Assembly: GCA_030532065.1 (NCBI GenBank)
Contig: JAUNLW010000001.1
Location: forward strand, 430,132 to 494,131
DNA length: 64,000 nt
Source of the DNA: Eubacteriales bacterium
Lineage (GTDB): Bacteria > Bacillota > Clostridia > Saccharofermentanales > DTU023
Reading direction: 5' to 3'
Under the pieces are notes generated by a model that was given only the letters and a program-made list of their open reading frames with translations, was not told where the DNA came from and did no database searches. Within the stretch, counting starts at the first letter, position 1. Each line of letters opens with the position of its first letter. Positions 24,331-33,146 of the stretch are shown one piece after another. Position numbers and translations under genes: made by a program.

Positions 24331-24936
24331 CTAGCGAACTTTACGCAAAATCAAGAGCAGGAAAGCAGGAGCTAAGCTTACAGCTAAGGGAGAGGCTACA
24401 GAAGTAGCTACCAACTCAGTAGTCGGCTTAGCGTCCATAGGTTTTTGTTCTGGCTCAGCTTCAGCAGTCTTTGCGGGAGCGGTAGGAGCATATAAAGGTG
24501 CAGCTTCAACCTCTTCGTCTTCCTTAGGAGGAGGAGCGGGAGCATACAGGGAATCAGCAGGCTGTTCAGCTGCTTGTTGCGCAGGAGCTGCTTGATCAGT
24601 ATTTTTGCTGCCTAAGACTGTAACTATGCTGGTGCCAGTTGTTCTTATGGTAGCATTTCTTTCTAAAACAATAAGGACAGTTACTTCATAGACGCCGGGG
24701 ACATTCGTGTCTAAAGCTTCCAGATTATTTCCGGCTTCATCTACAACCTTAATTAAGGTTATGGTGAACTGATTGTCTTTGAGAAATTCGAGGCTTCCAG
24801 CACCGCTAGGCCATTCTTGGATCAGGTTTACCGCACCTGCAAAACCTTGTTTATTTAGTAACATTTTAGGCGAGAAGTTAGCACCTTGGTTAAGGGTTAG
24901 TGCTTCTTTCATCCGAGCTTCGAGATATACTTTCAT
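24331..24936 (-). CDS. Truncated cell-surface protein fragment with C-terminal membrane anchor
   Basis: I do not recognise a specific family. The 201 residues look like the C-terminal end of a larger wall protein. A stretch near residues 70-110 (DTNVPGVYEVTVLIVLE and TSIVTVLG) resembles a bacterial Ig-like beta domain. It is followed by a Pro/Ala/Glu-rich spacer (APAPPPKEDEEVEAAPLYAP) and a final hydrophobic helix with a basic tail (LAPAFLLLILRKVR), as in surface anchors. There is no signal peptide at the proposed ATG, and the frame stays open upstream of it, overlapping a hydrolase remnant. It is probably a decayed gene end brought here by rearrangement. Confidence 0.45.
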   Translation of the reverse strand: MKVYLEARMKEALTLNQGANFSPKMLLNKQGFAGAVNLIQEWPSGAGSLEFLKDNQFTITLIKVVDEAGNNLEALDTNVPGVYEVTVLIVLERNATIRTTGTSIVTVLGSKNTDQAAPAQQAAEQPADSLYAPAPPPKEDEEVEAAPLYAPTAPAKTAEAEPEQKPMDAKPTTELVATSVASPLAVSLAPAFLLLILRKVR

Positions 24937-25191: not shown

Positions 25192-26076
25192 TTAGTCTTC
25201 AGAAATGAATTTGAGAATTTCTTCGCGGGTCTTCTGGTAGTAATCCTTTTCCAGATACATGGCGTGTCCAGCACCGTGTAAGTGCAAGAGTTTTGAACTT
25301 TCAGGAAGCTCTTTGACGGCCTGATAGCAGCGATCGATGTTTACATAGAAGTCATTATCGCCGGTAATGATGAGAACGGGTACTTTAACTGCTTTGGTAT
25401 CAATTAACCAGCCATCACCGATTTCCATAATCTCTTTTGCGCCGCCATTAGGACGTCCGTGGCCGGCGTCTTGAGCATAGGTATTATTAACCCAAAGTCC
25501 GTGTAATTCTGGTTCAACAGTGTCAAAGTCCGTTTCTAATTCGTTAGTACCAGGGATGTGCTGCCAAACACGAATTACATAACCGTAATTCAAATCAGAG
25601 AAAGGTTCGGTCATAGGCACAGGATCGAAGGCACCACCAAAGCAGGGTCCAAGCCAGACTACTTTATGAAGCAGGTCGGGTCTCTGAGAAGCTACTTTCG
25701 CGGTGGTCATTGTTCCCCAAGACCAGCCTAAGAGATCACACTTTTCAACGCCTTGTAATTTGCAGATTTTTTCCAAGGCATAAATTTGATCTTCAGCCGC
25801 GTTCTGTGTAGTAACATCCCATCCATTCTCATATTTCTCAGATTTACCATAACCGCCTAAGTCAAGGCGCCAAACGGTATAGCCATTCTTGGCAAAGTAT
25901 TCACATACGCTGTAATCTTTGTATTTTATATCAAAGACATGCTGCGTATATGTCAGACCATGCACCATAAGGATGTTTTTGTGTTGCCAGCTAGCAGGGC
26001 AGTCGAATTTGGTTAGATACAGCATTTTGCCGTTATCTTCTCTTTTCAGATCAACTACTTCACAATTGTAACGCAT
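25192..26076 (-). CDS. Alpha/beta hydrolase of the reductase island
   Basis: This 294-residue protein is a complete alpha/beta hydrolase. The oxyanion segment is MVHGLTYTQH, the nucleophile Ser sits in GWSWGT (about residue 125), the acid is in ITGDNDFYV and the His in GAGHAMYLE. Such enzymes cleave esters, amides, thioesters or C-C bonds; nothing here fixes the substrate. No signal peptide is present, so it acts in the cytoplasm. The start at 26076 follows AAGGAG; the in-frame ATGs upstream lack a site. It lies last in a minus-strand arm with the oxidoreductase and permease genes, but a 180-base gap with a TATAAT box and repeats suggests its own promoter. Confidence 0.88.
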   Translation of the reverse strand: MRYNCEVVDLKREDNGKMLYLTKFDCPASWQHKNILMVHGLTYTQHVFDIKYKDYSVCEYFAKNGYTVWRLDLGGYGKSEKYENGWDVTTQNAAEDQIYALEKICKLQGVEKCDLLGWSWGTMTTAKVASQRPDLLHKVVWLGPCFGGAFDPVPMTEPFSDLNYGYVIRVWQHIPGTNELETDFDTVEPELHGLWVNNTYAQDAGHGRPNGGAKEIMEIGDGWLIDTKAVKVPVLIITGDNDFYVNIDRCYQAVKELPESSKLLHLHGAGHAMYLEKDYYQKTREEILKFISED

Positions 26077-26162
26077 TAGTTTTCTCCTTCTAATTCTACA
26101 AATCATTGAGTGTTCCATTTAACTCTGCTTTGTAGTAGATGCGTTAAGCCTATTACTGACTG

Positions 26163-26168
26163 ATTATA
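26163..26168 (-). promoter_or_regulatory. -10 box for the island hydrolase gene
   Basis: TATAAT on the minus strand, 87 bases before the hydrolase start. No good -35 lies at the right distance; instead the two 13-bp repeats occupy that region, which fits an activator-dependent promoter. Confidence 0.4.
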
Positions 26169-26189
26169 AAATAAACCTGCACTCTCTGA

Positions 26190-26230
26190 AATTGTTTAGA
26201 ATTTGCACAAAACTTAGAATTGTTTAGAAT
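26190..26230. repeat. Two perfect 13-bp direct repeats upstream of the hydrolase gene
   Basis: AATTGTTTAGAAT occurs at 26190-26202 and again at 26218-26230, with a 28-base period. They lie just upstream of the minus-strand TATAAT box and are likely regulator-binding sites. Confidence 0.6.
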
Positions 26231-26257
26231 AAGTATTAGTGATTATGCCAGCCGAGA

Positions 26258-26884
26258 TTAGATTGAATCATTAAGGCACAGTTCAAATACTTCTTCCCAA
26301 ACATCTCTGGGCTGCGCTCCGCTCAAAACATATTTACCGTTCACTATGAAGCCTGGAACATTACCATTCAATCCAACGAGATCATTAGTTTTAGCATTCT
26401 CTATTAGCTTATGTTCCCAAATGGGCTCTGTTAGTGCTTTATCTAAGCTTATTGGAGGTAATCCTACTTGCAATATAGCTTGAAGGATTACGTTTGGATC
26501 ACTTATATTTTGCCCTTTGAACATATATAAGTCCCATATCTGATTAAGAAAAGCTTCTCCTTTACCTTTGCTTAGAGCATATTCAGCTACGCGCAAAGCG
26601 CTGTGTGTATTTGAAAAGATGTCTTTTTCAAAGAAATGAATACCATAGGGCTGACCTATGGTATTCAATACATCGTAAAATTGTTTTGGATCTTCTAAAT
26701 GCCAGCTCATAGGCATTCCGTGTATGGGAGCATCTGGATGTATTTCCATGAATAGATAATCTAGCTGAAAATCATACTTATCCCTTAGTGAATCAAGCAT
26801 ATATTTGCCCAAACAACACCATTCACAGATGATATCTAGCAGCATGACCACATGTATTTTTTTCTCTTCAACCCGAGTATCCAT
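26258..26884 (-). CDS. DsbA/FrnE-like thiol oxidoreductase
   Basis: This 208-residue protein has the thioredoxin-like fold with helical insert found in FrnE and 2-hydroxychromene-2-carboxylate isomerase relatives. The active site is CEWC (Cys20 and Cys23, followed by another Cys24), and the cis-Pro loop and end are VPGFIVNGKYVLSGAQ. No signal peptide is present, so it is cytoplasmic, as for FrnE-type proteins. It could handle a thiol or disulfide intermediate, or supply reducing equivalents to the nearby selenoprotein; this is inference. The ATG at 26884 (after AGGGG) is preferred to GTG at 26890. It starts eight bases after the permease stop and is co-transcribed with it. Confidence 0.85.
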   Translation of the reverse strand: MDTRVEEKKIHVVMLLDIICEWCCLGKYMLDSLRDKYDFQLDYLFMEIHPDAPIHGMPMSWHLEDPKQFYDVLNTIGQPYGIHFFEKDIFSNTHSALRVAEYALSKGKGEAFLNQIWDLYMFKGQNISDPNVILQAILQVGLPPISLDKALTEPIWEHKLIENAKTNDLVGLNGNVPGFIVNGKYVLSGAQPRDVWEEVFELCLNDSI

Positions 26885-26892
26885 AAACACCC

Positions 26893-28611
26893 CTAACTTA
26901 GTAATTCTGGCATTGGATCTATTCCCAAATATATGAAAAGACCTACTAGCAAGGATACTATTAAACTATACATGAGACAGGGGACAATATTTATTCGAAT
27001 TAGCTTACCTTCATTGCCATTTGTACCTGTTGTGGCACAAACAGAAACTATATTATTTACGCAGATCATATTGCCGATACATCCTCCCATCGACTGTAAT
27101 GCAACAATGAAGACAGGAGAAGTTCCTATTAGAGTAGCTGTTTCAAACTGGAGAGAGGCGAACAGTGTGTTAGATACCGTACATGATCCAGACATAAAAG
27201 AACCTAGGACACCTAACAAAGGTGCTACTAAGAAGTAACCTTTGGGGAATAATTTAGCTAAAGCTCTAGCCATTACATAAAGCATACTGCTGTTAGTGAA
27301 ATTGAAATCTCCACCAAAACTATCTGCCGCAACTATACTACCTATAGCCGCGTTACTGGTATAGCGGTACATATTGACCATGGCTACACCAAATAACAGC
27401 GCGACCGCTGCACCTGAAACTTGTTTAAAAGATTCTCTGATTGCAGCTTTAGCGTCATCTCTACGCATATGATGGATAAAAATGGTTAGCAAAGCTATGG
27501 GAATAAAAGGCATAATTCCCGCATTGTACAGAAACTTAAAATCCCAGTTAACTCCCTGTACTCCTAAAATGTCGTGAATTTTAATAGTTAGCTTATCTGC
27601 CGTAAAAAATGTTTTTAATCCGAATAAATTAAGCCGGCTAGCAACCAGCATTAGACTAATGATTATATAAGGCATCCAAGCGAGGATAGGCTTCATATTA
27701 GTATCTTTGACCGAGGAAACTACAGTAGTGGATTGCCAGGATGGATGCCCCCAATCTTGATGTCCTTCAAATGTCCAAACTTTTTTCGGCATCATGAAAC
27801 CTTTTTTTGCGGCAAAAATAAGAATAGGGAGCGCGCCCAAGAACGACACCATCGAAACCAGTTCTGGTGCAGAAGTCAGAGCCAATAATATATACAACGT
27901 ACCAACAACCGCTGCCGTGAGGAGACAAAATGGAATGGCTGGAAGTGCGTCTTTGAAGGAATGGTTCTTGCCAAAAACTTTTACCAGCACAAAAACTCCG
28001 GCCATAATAATAAAAATTCCGCCAATCATATGTGGGATACAAACCCATTTCGTCAATTCAGAAGTAAACTCTGCTGGATCACCACCACGCAAAATAACAG
28101 CATCTGAGACAACACGAGAAGCAGTCAATAAAGGAACACCTACAGGTCCTGGATTAACAGGAGTGGAATTATAAATTAGGCAAACTGAAGCGGCTGCTAA
28201 CGGAGGAAACCCTAAACTGATTAAGATAGGTGCAGCAAGTGCGGCAGGTGTACCAAAGCCGGCAGACCCCTCAATAAATCCTGCGAAAACGAAACCAATT
28301 AAAATTGCTTGAATTCTAGCATCTTCAGTTATACCGGAAAACATTTTATTAATTGAGGCCATTGCGCCTGATTGCTTTAAAATGTTCATCAGTAATATAG
28401 CGCCAAAAATGATAGCGATTGTTTCAAAAGCTCCAAGAAACCCGGAGATTGTACGCGCTGAAATTTCGTGCGCGGACATTTTCCAAATAAAGCCTGCGGT
28501 TAGACATGCTACTAGCCAAGATAGAATTAATGATTTTTTTGCAGGCCAATTAAAGAAAACCATTAAAACTACAGTAAGTAGAATCGGAACTGAAGCTATT
28601 AAAGCATACAC
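26893..28611 (-). CDS. LctP-family (L-lactate/2-hydroxyacid type) permease
   Basis: This 572-residue membrane protein has about 13-14 hydrophobic helices. The family signature [20 protein letters not shown] is in helix region 110-130, and a second conserved part is [21 protein letters not shown]. LctP proteins take up lactate, glycolate and other small 2-hydroxy acids with protons. Here no lactate dehydrogenase or lactate-use genes are adjacent, so the cargo may be a different small acid. The start is GTG at 28611 with GAGGGGG nine bases upstream. It heads the minus-strand arm of the island, diverging from the TetR gene. Confidence 0.92.
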
Positions 28612-28796
28612 AATACAATTACCCCCTCACATTTACGAGTATCATCCTCAAAAATCAGATGCATTACTGCACTTGGCGGTATGGTAGGCAATTTTTGTTG
28701 AAACAAGCATTGTCAGATTTAGGCAAGTGTCTATATTTACGTTAGATTTAATAATTTTTCTCTGTAAAGTGTTTAATTTTTGTGCATAAAAATTTT

Positions 28797-28851
28797 TTGC
28801 GCAAGTTTTGCAAAACTAATTCTCTAAATCCTCAAGCGTTTCCTTTATAAT
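28797..28851. promoter_or_regulatory. Divergent control region with palindromes and TATAAT box
   Basis: The 297-base gap between the permease and TetR genes is very AT-rich. Two adjacent palindromes, TTGCGCAA (28797-28804) and GTTTTGCAAAAC (28805-28816), lie 30 bases before a plus-strand TATAAT (28846-28851), which itself is 58 bases from the TetR start. The -35 is weak. The palindromes are good candidates for the operator of the adjacent TetR protein. Confidence 0.45.
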
Positions 28852-28908
28852 AGTAACCAAAGTGAAAGTTCGGACGCTTAAATGATTCGTAAAGTAAAGG
28901 GGGTCTTG

Positions 28909-29535
28909 ATGCCTATTAATAAAGTAACCAAAGGCGCTATTTCCTCAGCAATAGAAGAACTTCTATTGACTTGTTCTTTTACTAAAGTTACAGTCAAAGA
29001 CATTGCCGACACCTGCGGTATCAGCAGAAATACTTTTTATTATCATTTCCAGGATAAGTATGAGCTGATGGATTGGATCTTTATGGAAGATTTAGCGGAA
29101 AATGTAAAAAATTATGATGACCCAGATAAACTGGCTGATACTTTTCTTGCCATATGCAGGTTTATGCTTAAGAGGAGAAACCTGTATTATCCATTTTTAC
29201 AGTATAATGGTCAAAATTCTTTGCAAGAAAGATTGACAGAATTCTATTACGAACTTTGGCTTTTGAAAATAAATATGCAATACGCTAATTCTGGATTGAA
29301 ACTACGTGACAATGAATTAGAAGTCTATGCCAGGATGAATGCGCATGCTTTAGTGGGATTAATTTGTGATTGGGTCAACAATGGGATGCGTAATGATTAT
29401 ACGCAGTATCTGGATGAAGTTTACTCCATTATTTATTTACAAGGTGAACTGCACTCAGCAATGTTAGAATGTCGCTTGAACATGAAAGAGAAATCGCCTC
29501 AATCAAATACATTGAATGGAGCAGAAGTTTCCTAA
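28909..29535 (+). CDS. TetR/AcrR-family transcriptional regulator of the reductase island
   Basis: This 208-residue protein has an N-terminal TetR helix-turn-helix (FTKVTVKDIADTCGISRNTFYYHFQDKYEL, residues about 23-52, shown in part by DIADTCGISRNTFYYHF). The C-terminal half is all-helical and resembles the DhaS/TetR_C-type ligand domain. The ATG at 28909 sits six bases after AGGGGG and is preferred to ATG at 28882. Its stop overlaps the ATG of the next gene by one base (TAATG), so regulator and reductase subunit are translationally coupled. It probably controls both island arms. Confidence 0.88.
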   Translation: MPINKVTKGAISSAIEELLLTCSFTKVTVKDIADTCGISRNTFYYHFQDKYELMDWIFMEDLAENVKNYDDPDKLADTFLAICRFMLKRRNLYYPFLQYNGQNSLQERLTEFYYELWLLKINMQYANSGLKLRDNELEVYARMNAHALVGLICDWVNNGMRNDYTQYLDEVYSIIYLQGELHSAMLECRLNMKEKSPQSNTLNGAEVS

Positions 29536-30350
29536 TGAAGCCACTACCTGTTTACTCAAGAGATACTGATTCTTCCGATGAAGATTACAAACCTCCCGTA
29601 CCTTTAATAAATTATGGTATACCTGCCCCCAAACGTTGCGTGTCCATGCTGTTGGCAAAGTACAAGTGTGAAAACTATCATACAGAAGTTGATATGTATG
29701 CACCTGTACAAATGGATAGCCCTGTATTAAAAGTTCCTTTATCTGAGGCCAGAATCATTATGATAACAGACGGTGGATTAGTACCGGTTGGTAATCCAGA
29801 TCGTATTCCACCAACCAATGCAAACAGTTTTGGTATTTACTCTTTTGGTAGATGTAAATCGCTGGAGAGCGGAAATTACGAAGTCTCCCACCAAGGCTAC
29901 TGTCATAACGAGATTGACTTCAATCCTAATCGTCTTTTGCCGGTAGATATTTTATCCTTTTTGACCGATAAAGGCGTAATTGGCGAACTATACCCTTACT
30001 TTGTAAGTACTACCGGTGTAATGGTTCCTTGTGAAAATGCTAAATCTTTGGGAAGCCGCATTGCGGACTTTGTGAAAAAAAGACCTATAGATGCAGCAAT
30101 TATAGTTTCTACTTGTGCTACAAGTACCAGATGTGGATCTTATATTGGAATTGCTCTGGAAAACAAGGATATACCAGCCGTACAAATTACTAATTTAACT
30201 GATATTGCAAAAAGCACAGGGATGCATCGCGTGATTTCAGGTGACAGTGTTGATTGTCCAATTGGCAATAGTAAAATGTCCTCTGAGATTGAGTGGCATT
30301 TTCGACAAAATATTGTTTTAAACGCGCTGAATACTTTGACGCATATTTAA
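29535..30350 (+). CDS. Short GrdB-like protein with Cys in place of selenocysteine
   Basis: The 271 residues are homologous to the C-terminal 60% of GrdB-type selenoproteins and to the selenoprotein encoded 1.5 kb downstream. Matching blocks include ITDGGLVPVGNPD, NYEVSHQGY, FVSTTGVMVP and the active-site region VSTCATSTRCG. At the selenocysteine position it has Cys194 (TGT, 30114-30116). The N-terminal domain of GrdB (about 165 residues) is absent, and there is no stop or frameshift suggesting recent decay. In length it is close to PrdB of D-proline reductase. It could be a partner subunit, a selenium-independent version, or a redox relay. It overlaps the TetR gene by one base. Confidence 0.82.
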   Translation: MKPLPVYSRDTDSSDEDYKPPVPLINYGIPAPKRCVSMLLAKYKCENYHTEVDMYAPVQMDSPVLKVPLSEARIIMITDGGLVPVGNPDRIPPTNANSFGIYSFGRCKSLESGNYEVSHQGYCHNEIDFNPNRLLPVDILSFLTDKGVIGELYPYFVSTTGVMVPCENAKSLGSRIADFVKKRPIDAAIIVSTCATSTRCGSYIGIALENKDIPAVQITNLTDIAKSTGMHRVISGDSVDCPIGNSKMSSEIEWHFRQNIVLNALNTLTHI

Positions 30351-30543
30351 TGTAGTTTTCACACGCATTTAAACAAAATACAGTCTAGTAATTTTGGGCA
30401 ATTTAAATAATTGTCAAAAATCTAAACAGGTAACTTCATTGAGAATTGTGTGCTTTTTATTATGACTGATAATCAAATTGACAGTAATTTACGTCATTTG
30501 GCGGAAATCACAGTAGAAAGAGTATAAGAAGGAGGCTTGTCTA

Positions 30544-31821
30544 ATGAGCAAAAGATTGCAAATTGACTATATCCATATCTACGATGTGCAATTTGGTGAT
30601 GTGACTTCACTTGAAAACGGAGTTCTCACCATTAATAAAGAAGAACTACTAAGCATGGTTGAGAGTGAGCTGTTTGCCGATCTTGATATCAAAATCGCCT
30701 GCCCTGGAGACAGTTGCCGCATCTTAGGTATTCATGACGTTATGCAGCCAAGATGCAAAGCTGATGCTCCAGAAACTAGTTATCCTGGTATTTGGGGTAA
30801 ATTAGCCCCTATGGGAGAAGGTCGCACAGTTGCTCTCAAGGGTGTGGTTGTGTCTGATATTTACTATGCTAAGTGTAATATCAAATACTACTTGGATATG
30901 GGTGGAGAATGCGCGAAATACAGCAATTTTTCCCGACATTTTCATGTGGTTTTGGATGCTAAACCAGCACCGGGCATAAGTGATCTTAGCTACGCTGAAG
31001 CCCTAAAAAACGCATCTTTAACCATAAATGTTTTCCTGGCCAAGTTAGGCTTGGATCAAAAGCCCGATGACACAAAGGTTTATGAATTAGGACCAGTTGG
31101 CCCGGGACCTGATGGCAAGCCTTTGCCAAAAGTTGCTTATCATGTAGTACATATGGCTTCTCATGATACCTGGAATTTTTTGCTTTACGGACAAAGCGCT
31201 TTGAATTTCTTGCCAATAATAGTACAGCCTACTGAGATACTGGATGGTGCCATGATTTGGCGATATTGGGAACCAAACTATTTCCTCCAAGAAGAAGTGT
31301 ATATCAAGGAGCTAATGGATAGACACGGCAAGGATCTCGAATTTGTGGGAGTAGTTTTCTCAAATAATGTAATGAAAATCGATGGTAAAGATGCTATGGG
31401 CATGATGGCAGCTACGCTTTGCAAAGAAACTCTCAAGGCGGATTGCGTTATTGTCAACAAGTCAGGAATGGGTCACTGCCAGCTGGATCAAGCTCTTGCT
31501 TACAATTGGGAAGAGAGCATGGGAATGAAATGTGTTATGAATCTTAGCGCCGTTTCAAATGATAAGCCAGGAGATATGTTGGTTATATCTGATCCCAAAA
31601 TTGATGCTGTAATCAATAGTGGACGCAACTATGATCTGAATCATCCTAAGGTTGAGAGAGTAATAGGTGAAGATAGTAATGTACCCTCCTTAATGGGAGT
31701 CGATGTTAGAGGACCATTCACTCATACTACCAATTTTGCCTATCAAGGAATCTGGTCTCAACTTGGAGATTGCTATGTTACCACAGACGCGGATCTTCCA
31801 TTCAAAAAAGAAACGAGGTAG
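30544..31821 (+). CDS. GrdE/GrdG/GrdI-like reductase component B subunit lacking the pyruvoyl-forming Cys
   Basis: This 425-residue protein is collinear with the GrdE-type proprotein of glycine/sarcosine/betaine reductase component B. Recognisable parts are ACPGDSCRILGIHDVMQPRC (52-71), GRTVALKGVVV (93-103), PTEILDGA (229-236) and RHGKDLEFVGVVFSNN (260-275). In GrdE the chain is cut near residue 242 and a Cys becomes the substrate-binding pyruvoyl group. Here there is no Cys from 124 to 292, and no Cys, Ser or Thr between Thr230 and Ser273; position 242 is Trp. It should therefore remain one uncleaved chain without pyruvate. A strong AAGGAGG precedes the ATG. The selenoprotein gene follows after five bases. 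Confidence 0.85.
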   Translation: MSKRLQIDYIHIYDVQFGDVTSLENGVLTINKEELLSMVESELFADLDIKIACPGDSCRILGIHDVMQPRCKADAPETSYPGIWGKLAPMGEGRTVALKGVVVSDIYYAKCNIKYYLDMGGECAKYSNFSRHFHVVLDAKPAPGISDLSYAEALKNASLTINVFLAKLGLDQKPDDTKVYELGPVGPGPDGKPLPKVAYHVVHMASHDTWNFLLYGQSALNFLPIIVQPTEILDGAMIWRYWEPNYFLQEEVYIKELMDRHGKDLEFVGVVFSNNVMKIDGKDAMGMMAATLCKETLKADCVIVNKSGMGHCQLDQALAYNWEESMGMKCVMNLSAVSNDKPGDMLVISDPKIDAVINSGRNYDLNHPKVERVIGEDSNVPSLMGVDVRGPFTHTTNFAYQGIWSQLGDCYVTTDADLPFKKETR

Positions 31822-31826
31822 ACACA

Positions 31827-33146
31827 ATGGCCAATAAGTTAAAAGTCGTTCATTATATTAACCAGTTTTTTGCAGGCATGGGCGGTGAAGATACGGCTAG
31901 TGTTGGTGTATCTGTGCGTGAAGGTGCGGTTGGCCCAGGTTTAGCGTTACAGAAAGCCTTGGGAGATGAATATAGAATAGTTGCTACTATCGTATGCGGA
32001 GATAATACGATTGCCGAAGACACGGATCGTGTTCTAGAAGAGTTTGGAAAAATAATCAAGAAATATGATCCAGATCTATTTGTCGCTGGTCCTGGATTCA
32101 ATGCTGGACGCTATGGCATAGGTTGTGGAGCTTCAGTCGCTTATGTAACTGAGCAATTGAAAATTCCTGCTGTTACCGGCTTATATGCTGAAAACCCTGG
32201 TACGGATTTATATAAAGATCGTGGCTATATCCTGCAAACAAAAAATAACGCTGCCAGTATGGGCAAGTTTATTCCTGTTTTAGCAAAATTTGCTGATCGT
32301 TTGGTAAAAGGGGAACATATTGGTGATGGTAAGCAGGAAGGCTATCATGGTTCAGGCAAAGCTCCTGAAATCGATTTCAGTATTCCTGCCAGTAAACGTG
32401 GAGTAGATATGCTCCTTAAAAAATACCAAGGCAAAGACTTCTCTACGGAAGTAATTATGCCAAATCACGAAGAAATTCCGGTTCCGGTATTGAACAAGCC
32501 GTTAAGTGAATGTACGATAGCTTTCGTAACAGATGGAGGTTTAGTACCAAAAGGAAATCCCGATAATATGGTTCCTACAAATTCCAAAGAATTTAACCGC
32601 TATAGTATCGGAACAGGTGATGGTCTCAAAGCTGATGATTACGAAGTAAGCCATCAAGGTTACAATAATACCTTCGTACTGGAGGATCCTAACCGGCTTG
32701 TGCCTATTGACGCGGCAATCGCGTTGAAGAAAAAAGGTGAGATTGGCAATCTCTTAGATCATTACTACACCACTGCAGGCGTTATGACACCTATGGAAAA
32801 AGGTAAGCAGTTTGGTTCTGATATTGCGCAAGACTTAAAAGATCACAATGTAGATGCTGTCATTTTGACAAGTACCTGAGGTACCTCCTCTCGCTGCGGC
32901 GCAGTGATGACTAAGGAAATAGAACGAGCAGGTATTCCAGTTGTTCACGTCACTAATCTTACAGAGATTTCTAAAGGTATAGGAAGCCATAGAATTTTAC
33001 GCGGTAACAGCGTACTCCATGTTTTCGGCAATCCTGGGTTGCCACATGAACAGGAAGAAAAGTATCGAGAAAACCATTTAGCAAAAGCTCTAAATATGTT
33101 GGAAGTAAAACCAGAAGCAGGTCAAAACAGCATTGTCGAAGATTAA
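31827..33146 (+). CDS. GrdB-like selenoprotein (UGA at 32877-32879 read as selenocysteine 351)
   Basis: Read through one in-frame TGA, this is a 439-residue protein of the GrdB family, the selenoprotein subunit that reductively cleaves substrate in glycine-type reductases. The N-terminus (KVVHYINQFFAGMGGED, VREGAVGPG, AGPGFNAGRYG, IPAVTGLYAENPG) is typical. The codon in question lies in LTST-U-GTSSRCGA, where the family has selenocysteine at about residue 350. Homology continues after it (IERAGIPVVHVTNLTEIS), and a hairpin follows at SECIS distance. The usual UxxCxxC motif is here UxxSxxC. The start at 31827 follows GAGG by eight bases. Standard gene callers will truncate or split this gene. 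Confidence 0.92.
32880..32907 (+). promoter_or_regulatory. SECIS-like element for selenocysteine insertion
   Basis: Directly after the UGA, bases 32891-32897 (TCGCTGC) pair with 32901-32907 (GCAGTGA) through seven base pairs including one G-U, leaving a GGC loop 19-21 bases after the UGA. Bacterial SECIS hairpins bound by SelB have a G-bearing apical loop at about this distance. Confidence 0.6.

What the first reader, a model, noticed from the sequence alone, without database searches (positions are those of the whole stretch)
25192..33146. Candidate undescribed uptake-and-reduction system built on a Grd-like selenoprotein
One divergent locus combines an LctP-type permease, a cytoplasmic DsbA/FrnE-like oxidoreductase, an alpha/beta hydrolase, a TetR regulator and three homologues of reductase component B: a short Cys form, a GrdE-like subunit and a GrdB-like selenoprotein. 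Known glycine, sarcosine, betaine and D-proline reductase loci carry grdA, grdC and grdD, or the prd genes, with thioredoxin genes; none is here. The permease implies a small carboxylic or hydroxy acid, the reductase a reductive bond cleavage, and the hydrolase a step that releases or removes an acyl or amide group. The three are separately known families; their union as one pathway is inference.
Basis: partly seen in the sequence, partly recalled or inferred. Interest (0 to 1): 0.82.

Follow-up and report, generated by a model that had tools for sequence, protein, structure and literature searches.

The report
Fluoroacetate reductase locus with enzyme-derived sensor
The locus is a horizontally acquired version of a recently described bacterial system that removes fluorine from the poison fluoroacetate using a selenium-containing enzyme, and its overlooked third enzyme-like gene looks like a copy of that enzyme turned into the sensor that switches the system on.

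Summary
The genes are really there, but the system is not undescribed. The GrdE-like protein is FarE (NCBIfam fluoroacetate reductase, 907 bits; cut-off 675). The GrdB-like protein is the selenoprotein FarB. The closest relative (86% FarE) is the only far locus of Pyramidobacter sp. C12-8, a published fluoroacetate degrader, and it has the same core order: lctP < > tetR-short-farE-farB. The "missing" grdA, grdC, grdD and thioredoxin genes lie elsewhere in the same genome, and grdA is in 20 of 23 far-bearing genomes checked. So FarEB most likely feeds carboxymethyl groups from fluoroacetate into the shared GrdA/GrdC/GrdD path. The locus is a low-GC insert between trmD and rplS, i.e. horizontally acquired.

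The new part is the short Cys form. It is a truncated FarB paralogue, Sec replaced by an invariant Cys, translationally coupled to a DhaS-like TetR. It is linked to that TetR in 20 of 21 loci that carry it, one of them a natural TetR-FarB-like fusion. No held paper mentions it. Best reading: a duplicated enzyme subunit serving as substrate sensor/co-activator, as DhaQ does for DhaS. Fluoroacetate as the native substrate and the sensor role are inferred, not shown.

The parts
25192..26118 (-). alpha/beta hydrolase, Ser nucleophile (GWSWG); accessory, recurs in 7 of about 30 far loci
   Evidence: Pfam Abhydrolase_1; homologues 47-88% identical in L009, L012, L013, L029, L083, L084; nucleophile Ser, not the Asp of fluoroacetate dehalogenases
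26258..26890 (-). cytoplasmic DsbA/FrnE-like protein with CEWC motif; accessory
   Evidence: Pfam DSBA; CEWC present in homologues of all far loci that carry one: L009, L010, L020, L027, L083, L084, L085
26893..28611 (-). LctP-family monocarboxylate permease, the likely importer of the substrate anion
   Evidence: Pfam Lactate_perm; TIGR00795 333 bits, cut-off 341; 62-72% identical homologues in about 13 far loci
28780..28804 (.). candidate operator TTGTGCA-N11-TGCGCAA between lctP and tetR
   Evidence: same half-sites occur as three perfect dyads in L021; matches at up to 3 mismatches in 17 of 44 regulatory regions against 3.8 expected, but the consensus was chosen from the same data
28882..29535 (+). 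DhaS-like TetR-family regulator (TetR_N + TetR_C_8)
   Evidence: TIGR02366 DhaS 103 bits, cut-off 129; phmmer to DhaS structure 2iu5 E 2.7e-10 over residues 14-168
29535..30350 (+). short Cys form: truncated FarB paralogue, proposed substrate-sensing co-regulator of the TetR
   Evidence: TAATG overlap with tetR; Cys at Sec position 18/18; one clade with FarB against Grd 100/100; fused to TetR in L085
30544..31821 (+). farE, fluoroacetate reductase subunit FarE
   Evidence: NF053623 907 bits, cut-off 675; 86% identical to Pyramidobacter sp. C12-8; lacks the pyruvoyl-forming Cys segment
31827..33146 (+). farB, GrdB-like selenoprotein (substrate-activating subunit)
   Evidence: GRDB 438 bits; clade with Cloacibacillus and Pyramidobacter FarB 99/99
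32877..32879 (+). in-frame TGA, selenocysteine codon (STU-GTSSRCG)
   Evidence: TGA in 29/29 FarB genes
32891..32907 (+). SECIS-like hairpin
   Evidence: 7-bp stem, 95% of cells paired over 27 distinct sequences against 16-56% when slid, with C-G/U-A, U-A/G-C and C-G/A-U exchanges

Best explanation
A horizontally acquired fluoroacetate-reductase (far) locus with its own enzyme-derived regulatory sensor. LctP imports the small halo-acid anion. FarE and FarB form a substrate-specific 'protein B' of the glycine reductase family; the FarB selenolate displaces fluoride from C2 of fluoroacetate, and the carboxymethyl group passes to the genome's shared GrdA, then GrdC/GrdD, giving acetyl phosphate, with thioredoxin supplying electrons. 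FarE has no pyruvoyl group, as expected for a substrate without a primary amine. The short Cys form is a duplicated FarB C-terminal domain that keeps the conserved pocket residues but has Cys for Sec; it is paired with a DhaS-like TetR and most likely senses the substrate and switches the operon on, as DhaQ does for DhaS. Shown here: family membership, selenoprotein signature, genome context, coupling and natural fusion of TetR and short form, horizontal acquisition. Inferred: fluoroacetate as substrate (shown by others only in relatives), transfer to GrdA, sensor role. The hydrolase and DsbA-like protein are accessory with unknown roles.
For: FarE equivalog score 907 against cut-off 675. Closest locus is Pyramidobacter sp. 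C12-8, 86% FarE, named as a fluoroacetate degrader in PMC12366334; it is the only far locus over cut-off in that genome and has the same lctP<>tetR>short>farE>farB order. far genes are induced about 5,000-fold by fluoroacetate and not highly by glycine in C. porcorum (PMC10838667). Complete grdEB-trxB-trxA-grdA-C-D operon in the same genome; GrdA in 20/23 far genomes. TGA plus covarying hairpin and SelB. Missing pyruvoyl Cys segment in FarE. Short form: Cys in 18/18, FarB-type pocket motifs TDGGLVP, HQGY, PNRL kept; one clade with FarB; linked to tetR in 20/21 loci, co-occurrence Fisher p 5e-5; TetR_N-TetR_C_8-GRDB fusion in L085; found in only the window genome among 391 of its class. Insert: trmD and rplS about 100 bp apart in same-genus and other relatives, 9 kb apart here, GC 0.396 against 0.47.
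Against: No activity has been tested for this genome. The described operon has an MFS transporter and a radical-SAM protein (farA, farC), both absent here. Many carriers are gut or oral Lachnospiraceae with no obvious fluoroacetate exposure, so the native substrate may be another alpha-substituted acetate. No CrcB fluoride exporter was found in the genome, which is about 93% complete. The window TetR is below the DhaS model cut-off. Three far loci carry tetR without a short form nearby. The fusion is a single case.
Confidence: 0.75

Rival explanations
1. Same reductase chemistry, different native substrate: FarEB cleaves another uncharged-leaving-group acetate (for example chloroacetate, or an acyl or ester conjugate freed by the neighbouring hydrolase), and fluoroacetate is a fortuitous substrate in the rumen strains.
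For: Carriers include gut and oral anaerobes such as Faecalimonas umbilicata, Hespellia stercorisuis and Catonella morbi; hydrolases (alpha/beta, M20) recur next to far genes; the 2023 authors themselves suggest that the preferred substrate may be another compound.
Against: Strong, specific induction of far by fluoroacetate in C. porcorum; C12-8 belongs to a lineage found by fluoroacetate enrichment.
Confidence: 0.3
2. The short Cys form is a third structural or catalytic subunit of the reductase (for example a PrdB-like dithiol subunit or repair thiol protein), not a sensor.
For: Both Cys of the CxxxxxC motif are kept in the short forms aligned; fold intact in the model, pLDDT over 90 for most of the domain.
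Against: About a third of far loci lack it nearby although they keep FarE and FarB; it tracks tetR rather than farEB, also where both lie apart from farEB (L014, L020, L028, L087); it overlaps or fuses with tetR; it evolves faster than FarB.
Confidence: 0.15
3. The short form is a redox sensor for the TetR (Cys pair disulphide) rather than a substrate sensor.
For: Two conserved Cys in CGTSTRC; DsbA-like protein nearby in some loci.
Against: Pocket motifs typical of FarB and not of GrdB are retained, which a pure redox switch would not need; published induction is by the substrate.
Confidence: 0.12
4. A wholly new reductive pathway independent of grdACD.
For: No grdACD inside the locus; three far-bearing assemblies lack a GrdA match.
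Against: grdA, grdC, grdD, trxA and trxB in the same genome; GrdA in 20 of 23 far genomes, the three without being metagenome assemblies; published induction of grdA with fluoroacetate.
Confidence: 0.05

Closest known systems
farACEB fluoroacetate reductase of Cloacibacillus porcorum MFA1 (PMC10838667; NCBIfam NF053623)
   Same: FarE and FarB orthologues, selenocysteine in an STUGTSS motif, no pyruvoyl site, shared GrdA system; a tetR-short pair also lies just downstream of farACEB in the matching genome L082
   Different: LctP permease in place of the MFS antiporter farA, no radical-SAM farC, divergent tetR-short upstream, one of the two GrdB Cys residues kept (SSRCG against SSRGG)
far locus of Pyramidobacter sp. 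C12-8 (L009)
   Same: same core gene order, 86% FarE identity, hydrolase and DsbA-like genes also present
   Different: hydrolase and DsbA-like genes lie downstream of farB with two GntR/FCD-domain genes between
Glycine, sarcosine and betaine reductase protein B (GrdE/B, GrdG/F, GrdI/H)
   Same: family, selenoprotein, two-subunit substrate module feeding GrdA
   Different: scores far below each family cut-off; FarE lacks the pyruvoyl Cys segment; pocket motifs differ (TDGGLVP against TSGGIVP, HQGY against HGGY)
DhaS/DhaQ regulators of the Lactococcus lactis dihydroxyacetone kinase operon (own knowledge; DhaS structure 2iu5)
   Same: TetR-family regulator of DhaS type genetically tied to a paralogue of the catalytic subunit that keeps its ligand pocket
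   Different: paralogue is of a selenoenzyme subunit (Sec to Cys); one natural fusion; no ligand binding shown

Membership tests
Fluoroacetate reductase (Far) | FarE above the NF053623 equivalog cut-off | tested here: met
   907 against 675 bits
Fluoroacetate reductase (Far) | FarB selenoprotein encoded next to farE, with TGA and SECIS | tested here: met
Fluoroacetate reductase (Far) | FarE without the Cys needed for a pyruvoyl group | tested here: met
   segment deleted relative to GrdE
Fluoroacetate reductase (Far) | FarB lacks the Cys pair after Sec (UxxCxxC of GrdB) | tested here: inconclusive
   first Cys replaced by Ser, second kept: UGTSSRC; both lost only in the Cloacibacillus-type branch
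Fluoroacetate reductase (Far) | farA MFS transporter and farC radical-SAM in the operon (described, but not needed: published degrader P. piscolens lacks both) | tested here: not met
   LctP instead of MFS, no radical-SAM gene in the locus
Fluoroacetate reductase (Far) | GrdA, GrdC, GrdD available in the genome | tested here: met
Fluoroacetate reductase (Far) | fluoride release from fluoroacetate | not testable with these tools
   needs cultures or purified protein
Glycine, sarcosine, betaine or D-proline reductase | component B subunits above the substrate-specific cut-offs | tested here: not met
   FarB: GrdF 464/800, GrdB 399/602, GrdH 386/775, PrdB 90/300 bits; FarE: GrdG 185/780, PrdA 23/700
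Hydrolytic fluoroacetate dehalogenase (alpha/beta hydrolase 25192-26118) | Asp nucleophile | tested here: not met
   GWSWG, Ser
DhaS-type TetR regulator | TIGR02366 cut-off | tested here: not met
   103 against 129 bits; relative, not equivalog
DhaS/DhaQ-like sensor pair (works like) | TetR coupled to a paralogue of the catalytic subunit | tested here: met
   adjacent in 19, fused in 1 of 21 loci with the short form
DhaS/DhaQ-like sensor pair (works like) | paralogue binds the substrate and the TetR protein | not testable with these tools
   needs binding assays

The most novel reading that the evidence does not exclude
A substrate-activating subunit of a selenoenzyme was duplicated, lost its N-terminal domain, exchanged its catalytic selenocysteine for cysteine and became the ligand sensor of a DhaS-like TetR regulator, in one lineage fused to it: an enzyme-derived, possibly covalent, sensor for fluoroacetate-like acids, overlooked in the described far operons.
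Probability: 0.65. Interest if true: 0.72.

Novelty: new variant of a known kind. Interest (0 to 1): 0.56.

Why it matters
Anaerobic cleavage of a carbon-fluorine bond is rare, and the published far operon was reported from three Synergistota species. This work places the same reductase, with a different importer, in gut and oral Lachnospiraceae and other Bacillota, spreading by horizontal transfer. The tetR-short pair offers a ready explanation for the thousand-fold induction by fluoroacetate and a genetically encoded fluoroacetate sensor that can be tested directly. It would also be a second clear case of an enzyme subunit recruited as co-regulator of a DhaS-type TetR.

Tried and rejected
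Non-TGA selenocysteine codons in Pyramidobacter FarB, suspected from split frames, were checked and are ordinary TGA. No relative of the short form was found in viral contigs. No solved structure matches FarE, and FarB has only a chance-level hit; the model of the short form matches no PDB fold significantly. A fluoride exporter was sought as support: CrcB in only 5 of 21 far genomes and not in this one, so it supports nothing. No Rfam family in the locus at E up to 1. The single-sequence hairpin test of the window is weak (z -1.5); the support comes from covariation. Alignment of the TetR-short fusion with separate TetR and short rows misplaced the TetR rows, so the fusion was not folded. The hydrolase as a fluoroacetate dehalogenase was rejected (Ser nucleophile). 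A shared operator is suggested but was not found in the Cloacibacillus-type loci.
Full report
What is there. FarE spans 30544-31821, FarB 31827-33146 with a TGA at 32877-32879, the short Cys form 29535-30350 (its ATG overlaps the tetR stop as TAATG), TetR 28882-29535, and on the minus strand LctP, a DsbA-like protein and an alpha/beta hydrolase.

What it is. The GrdE-like protein scores 907 bits against NCBIfam NF053623, fluoroacetate reductase subunit FarE, cut-off 675, and far below the glycine, sarcosine, betaine and D-proline models. The far operon was described in Cloacibacillus porcorum MFA1 (PMC10838667): two protein-B-like subunits, FarE and the selenoprotein FarB, induced about 5,000-fold by fluoroacetate and not highly by glycine, thought to hand a carboxymethyl group to the common GrdA/GrdC system. 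The best relative of the window's FarE, 86% identical, is in Pyramidobacter sp. C12-8, a strain reported to turn fluoroacetate into fluoride and acetate (PMC12366334). That genome has only one FarE over the cut-off, and its locus has the same core order as the window: lctP divergent from tetR-short-farE-farB, with hydrolase and DsbA-like genes downstream.

Chemistry. FarB carries TGA at the STU position in 29 of 29 genes compared; the hairpin 14-30 bases downstream keeps 95% of its pairs, with compensatory exchanges, and SelB is encoded. FarE lacks the segment with the pyruvoyl-forming Cys that GrdE of the same genome has, so no Schiff base with an amine is expected, which fits a substrate without a primary amine. 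FarB keeps only the second of the two Cys that follow Sec in GrdB. The same genome holds a complete grdE-grdB-trxB-trxA-grdA-grdC-grdD set and a betaine protein B with its BCCT transporter; 20 of 23 far genomes tested have GrdA. The absence of grdACD from the locus is therefore normal for a substrate-specific protein B and not a sign of a separate pathway.

Origin. In the same-genus relative and the other relatives where both genes lie in the fetched stretch, trmD and rplS are nearly always about 100 bases apart (one exception, L137); here they are 9 kb apart, and the insert has GC 0.396 against 0.47 on both sides. In the tree the window's FarB and short form stand next to those of Pyramidobacter C12-8. 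No same-order genome among those listed has FarE. This is horizontal acquisition.

The short Cys form. It corresponds to the C-terminal domain of FarB without the N-terminal domain. Together with FarB it forms one side of a branch with support 100/100 against Grd proteins, and it shares pocket motifs of FarB (TDGGLVP, HQGY, PNRL), not of GrdB. All 18 aligned copies have Cys where FarB has Sec. By my count, 21 far loci carry it: in 19 it is the direct neighbour of a tetR gene, in one it is separated from tetR by farEB (L021), and in one, L085, both are one 525-residue protein with TetR_N, TetR_C_8 and GRDB domains in a one-contig stretch of a 2.78 Mb genome. Some of these loci are near-duplicates (L015/L018, L009/L084). 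Presence of tetR and short form near far genes is associated (Fisher p 5e-5 on my table, not corrected for relatedness). In L014, L020, L028 and L087 the pair lies apart from or opposite to farEB and is still a pair. It also sits just downstream of farACEB in the genome that matches C. porcorum (L082), where the text of the published description does not mention it. Among 391 genomes of the class such a form was found in the window's genome only; the other hits are full-length selenoprotein frames or weak, PrdB-sized ones. The window TetR is DhaS-like. From my own knowledge, DhaS of Lactococcus lactis works with DhaQ, a paralogue of the kinase subunit that binds the substrate; that paper is not in the held library. 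I infer that the short form senses the substrate and works through the TetR protein. Whether it binds reversibly or through its Cys is open.

Limits. No activity was tested. The operator at 28780-28804 is suggestive only, since its consensus was taken from the same data. The native substrate in gut Lachnospiraceae may not be fluoroacetate.

Verdict.

Noticed in passing
L085 (second far locus of genome G529): One genome carries two far loci of different types: an LctP-type locus (L084) and an MFS-type locus with the TetR-short fusion.
   Followed up: partly
L022:11276-12595 and L064: FarB frame interrupted by TAA near codon 139 in a Clostridium-labelled genome; may be a decayed copy or an assembly error.
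   Followed up: no
L081:7180-7821: The tetR frame of the C. evryensis-like locus holds an in-frame TGA, so it may be broken there.
   Followed up: no
L012, L015, L017, L018, L019, L029 downstream of farB: An M20-family amidohydrolase gene recurs beside far genes of Lachnospiraceae, which hints at amide or ester conjugates as a source of the substrate.
   Followed up: no
L021, tetR-farE spacer: Three perfect dyads TTGTGCAT-N10-ATGCACAA, a strong candidate operator array.
   Followed up: partly
window 24331-24936, minus strand: 201-residue protein without Pfam match and with a hydrophobic C-terminal tail, between trmD and the far insert.
   Followed up: no
G000:C5 (L063): Betaine-reductase-type grdI-grdH with a glycine betaine BCCT transporter elsewhere in the window's genome.
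   Followed up: yes
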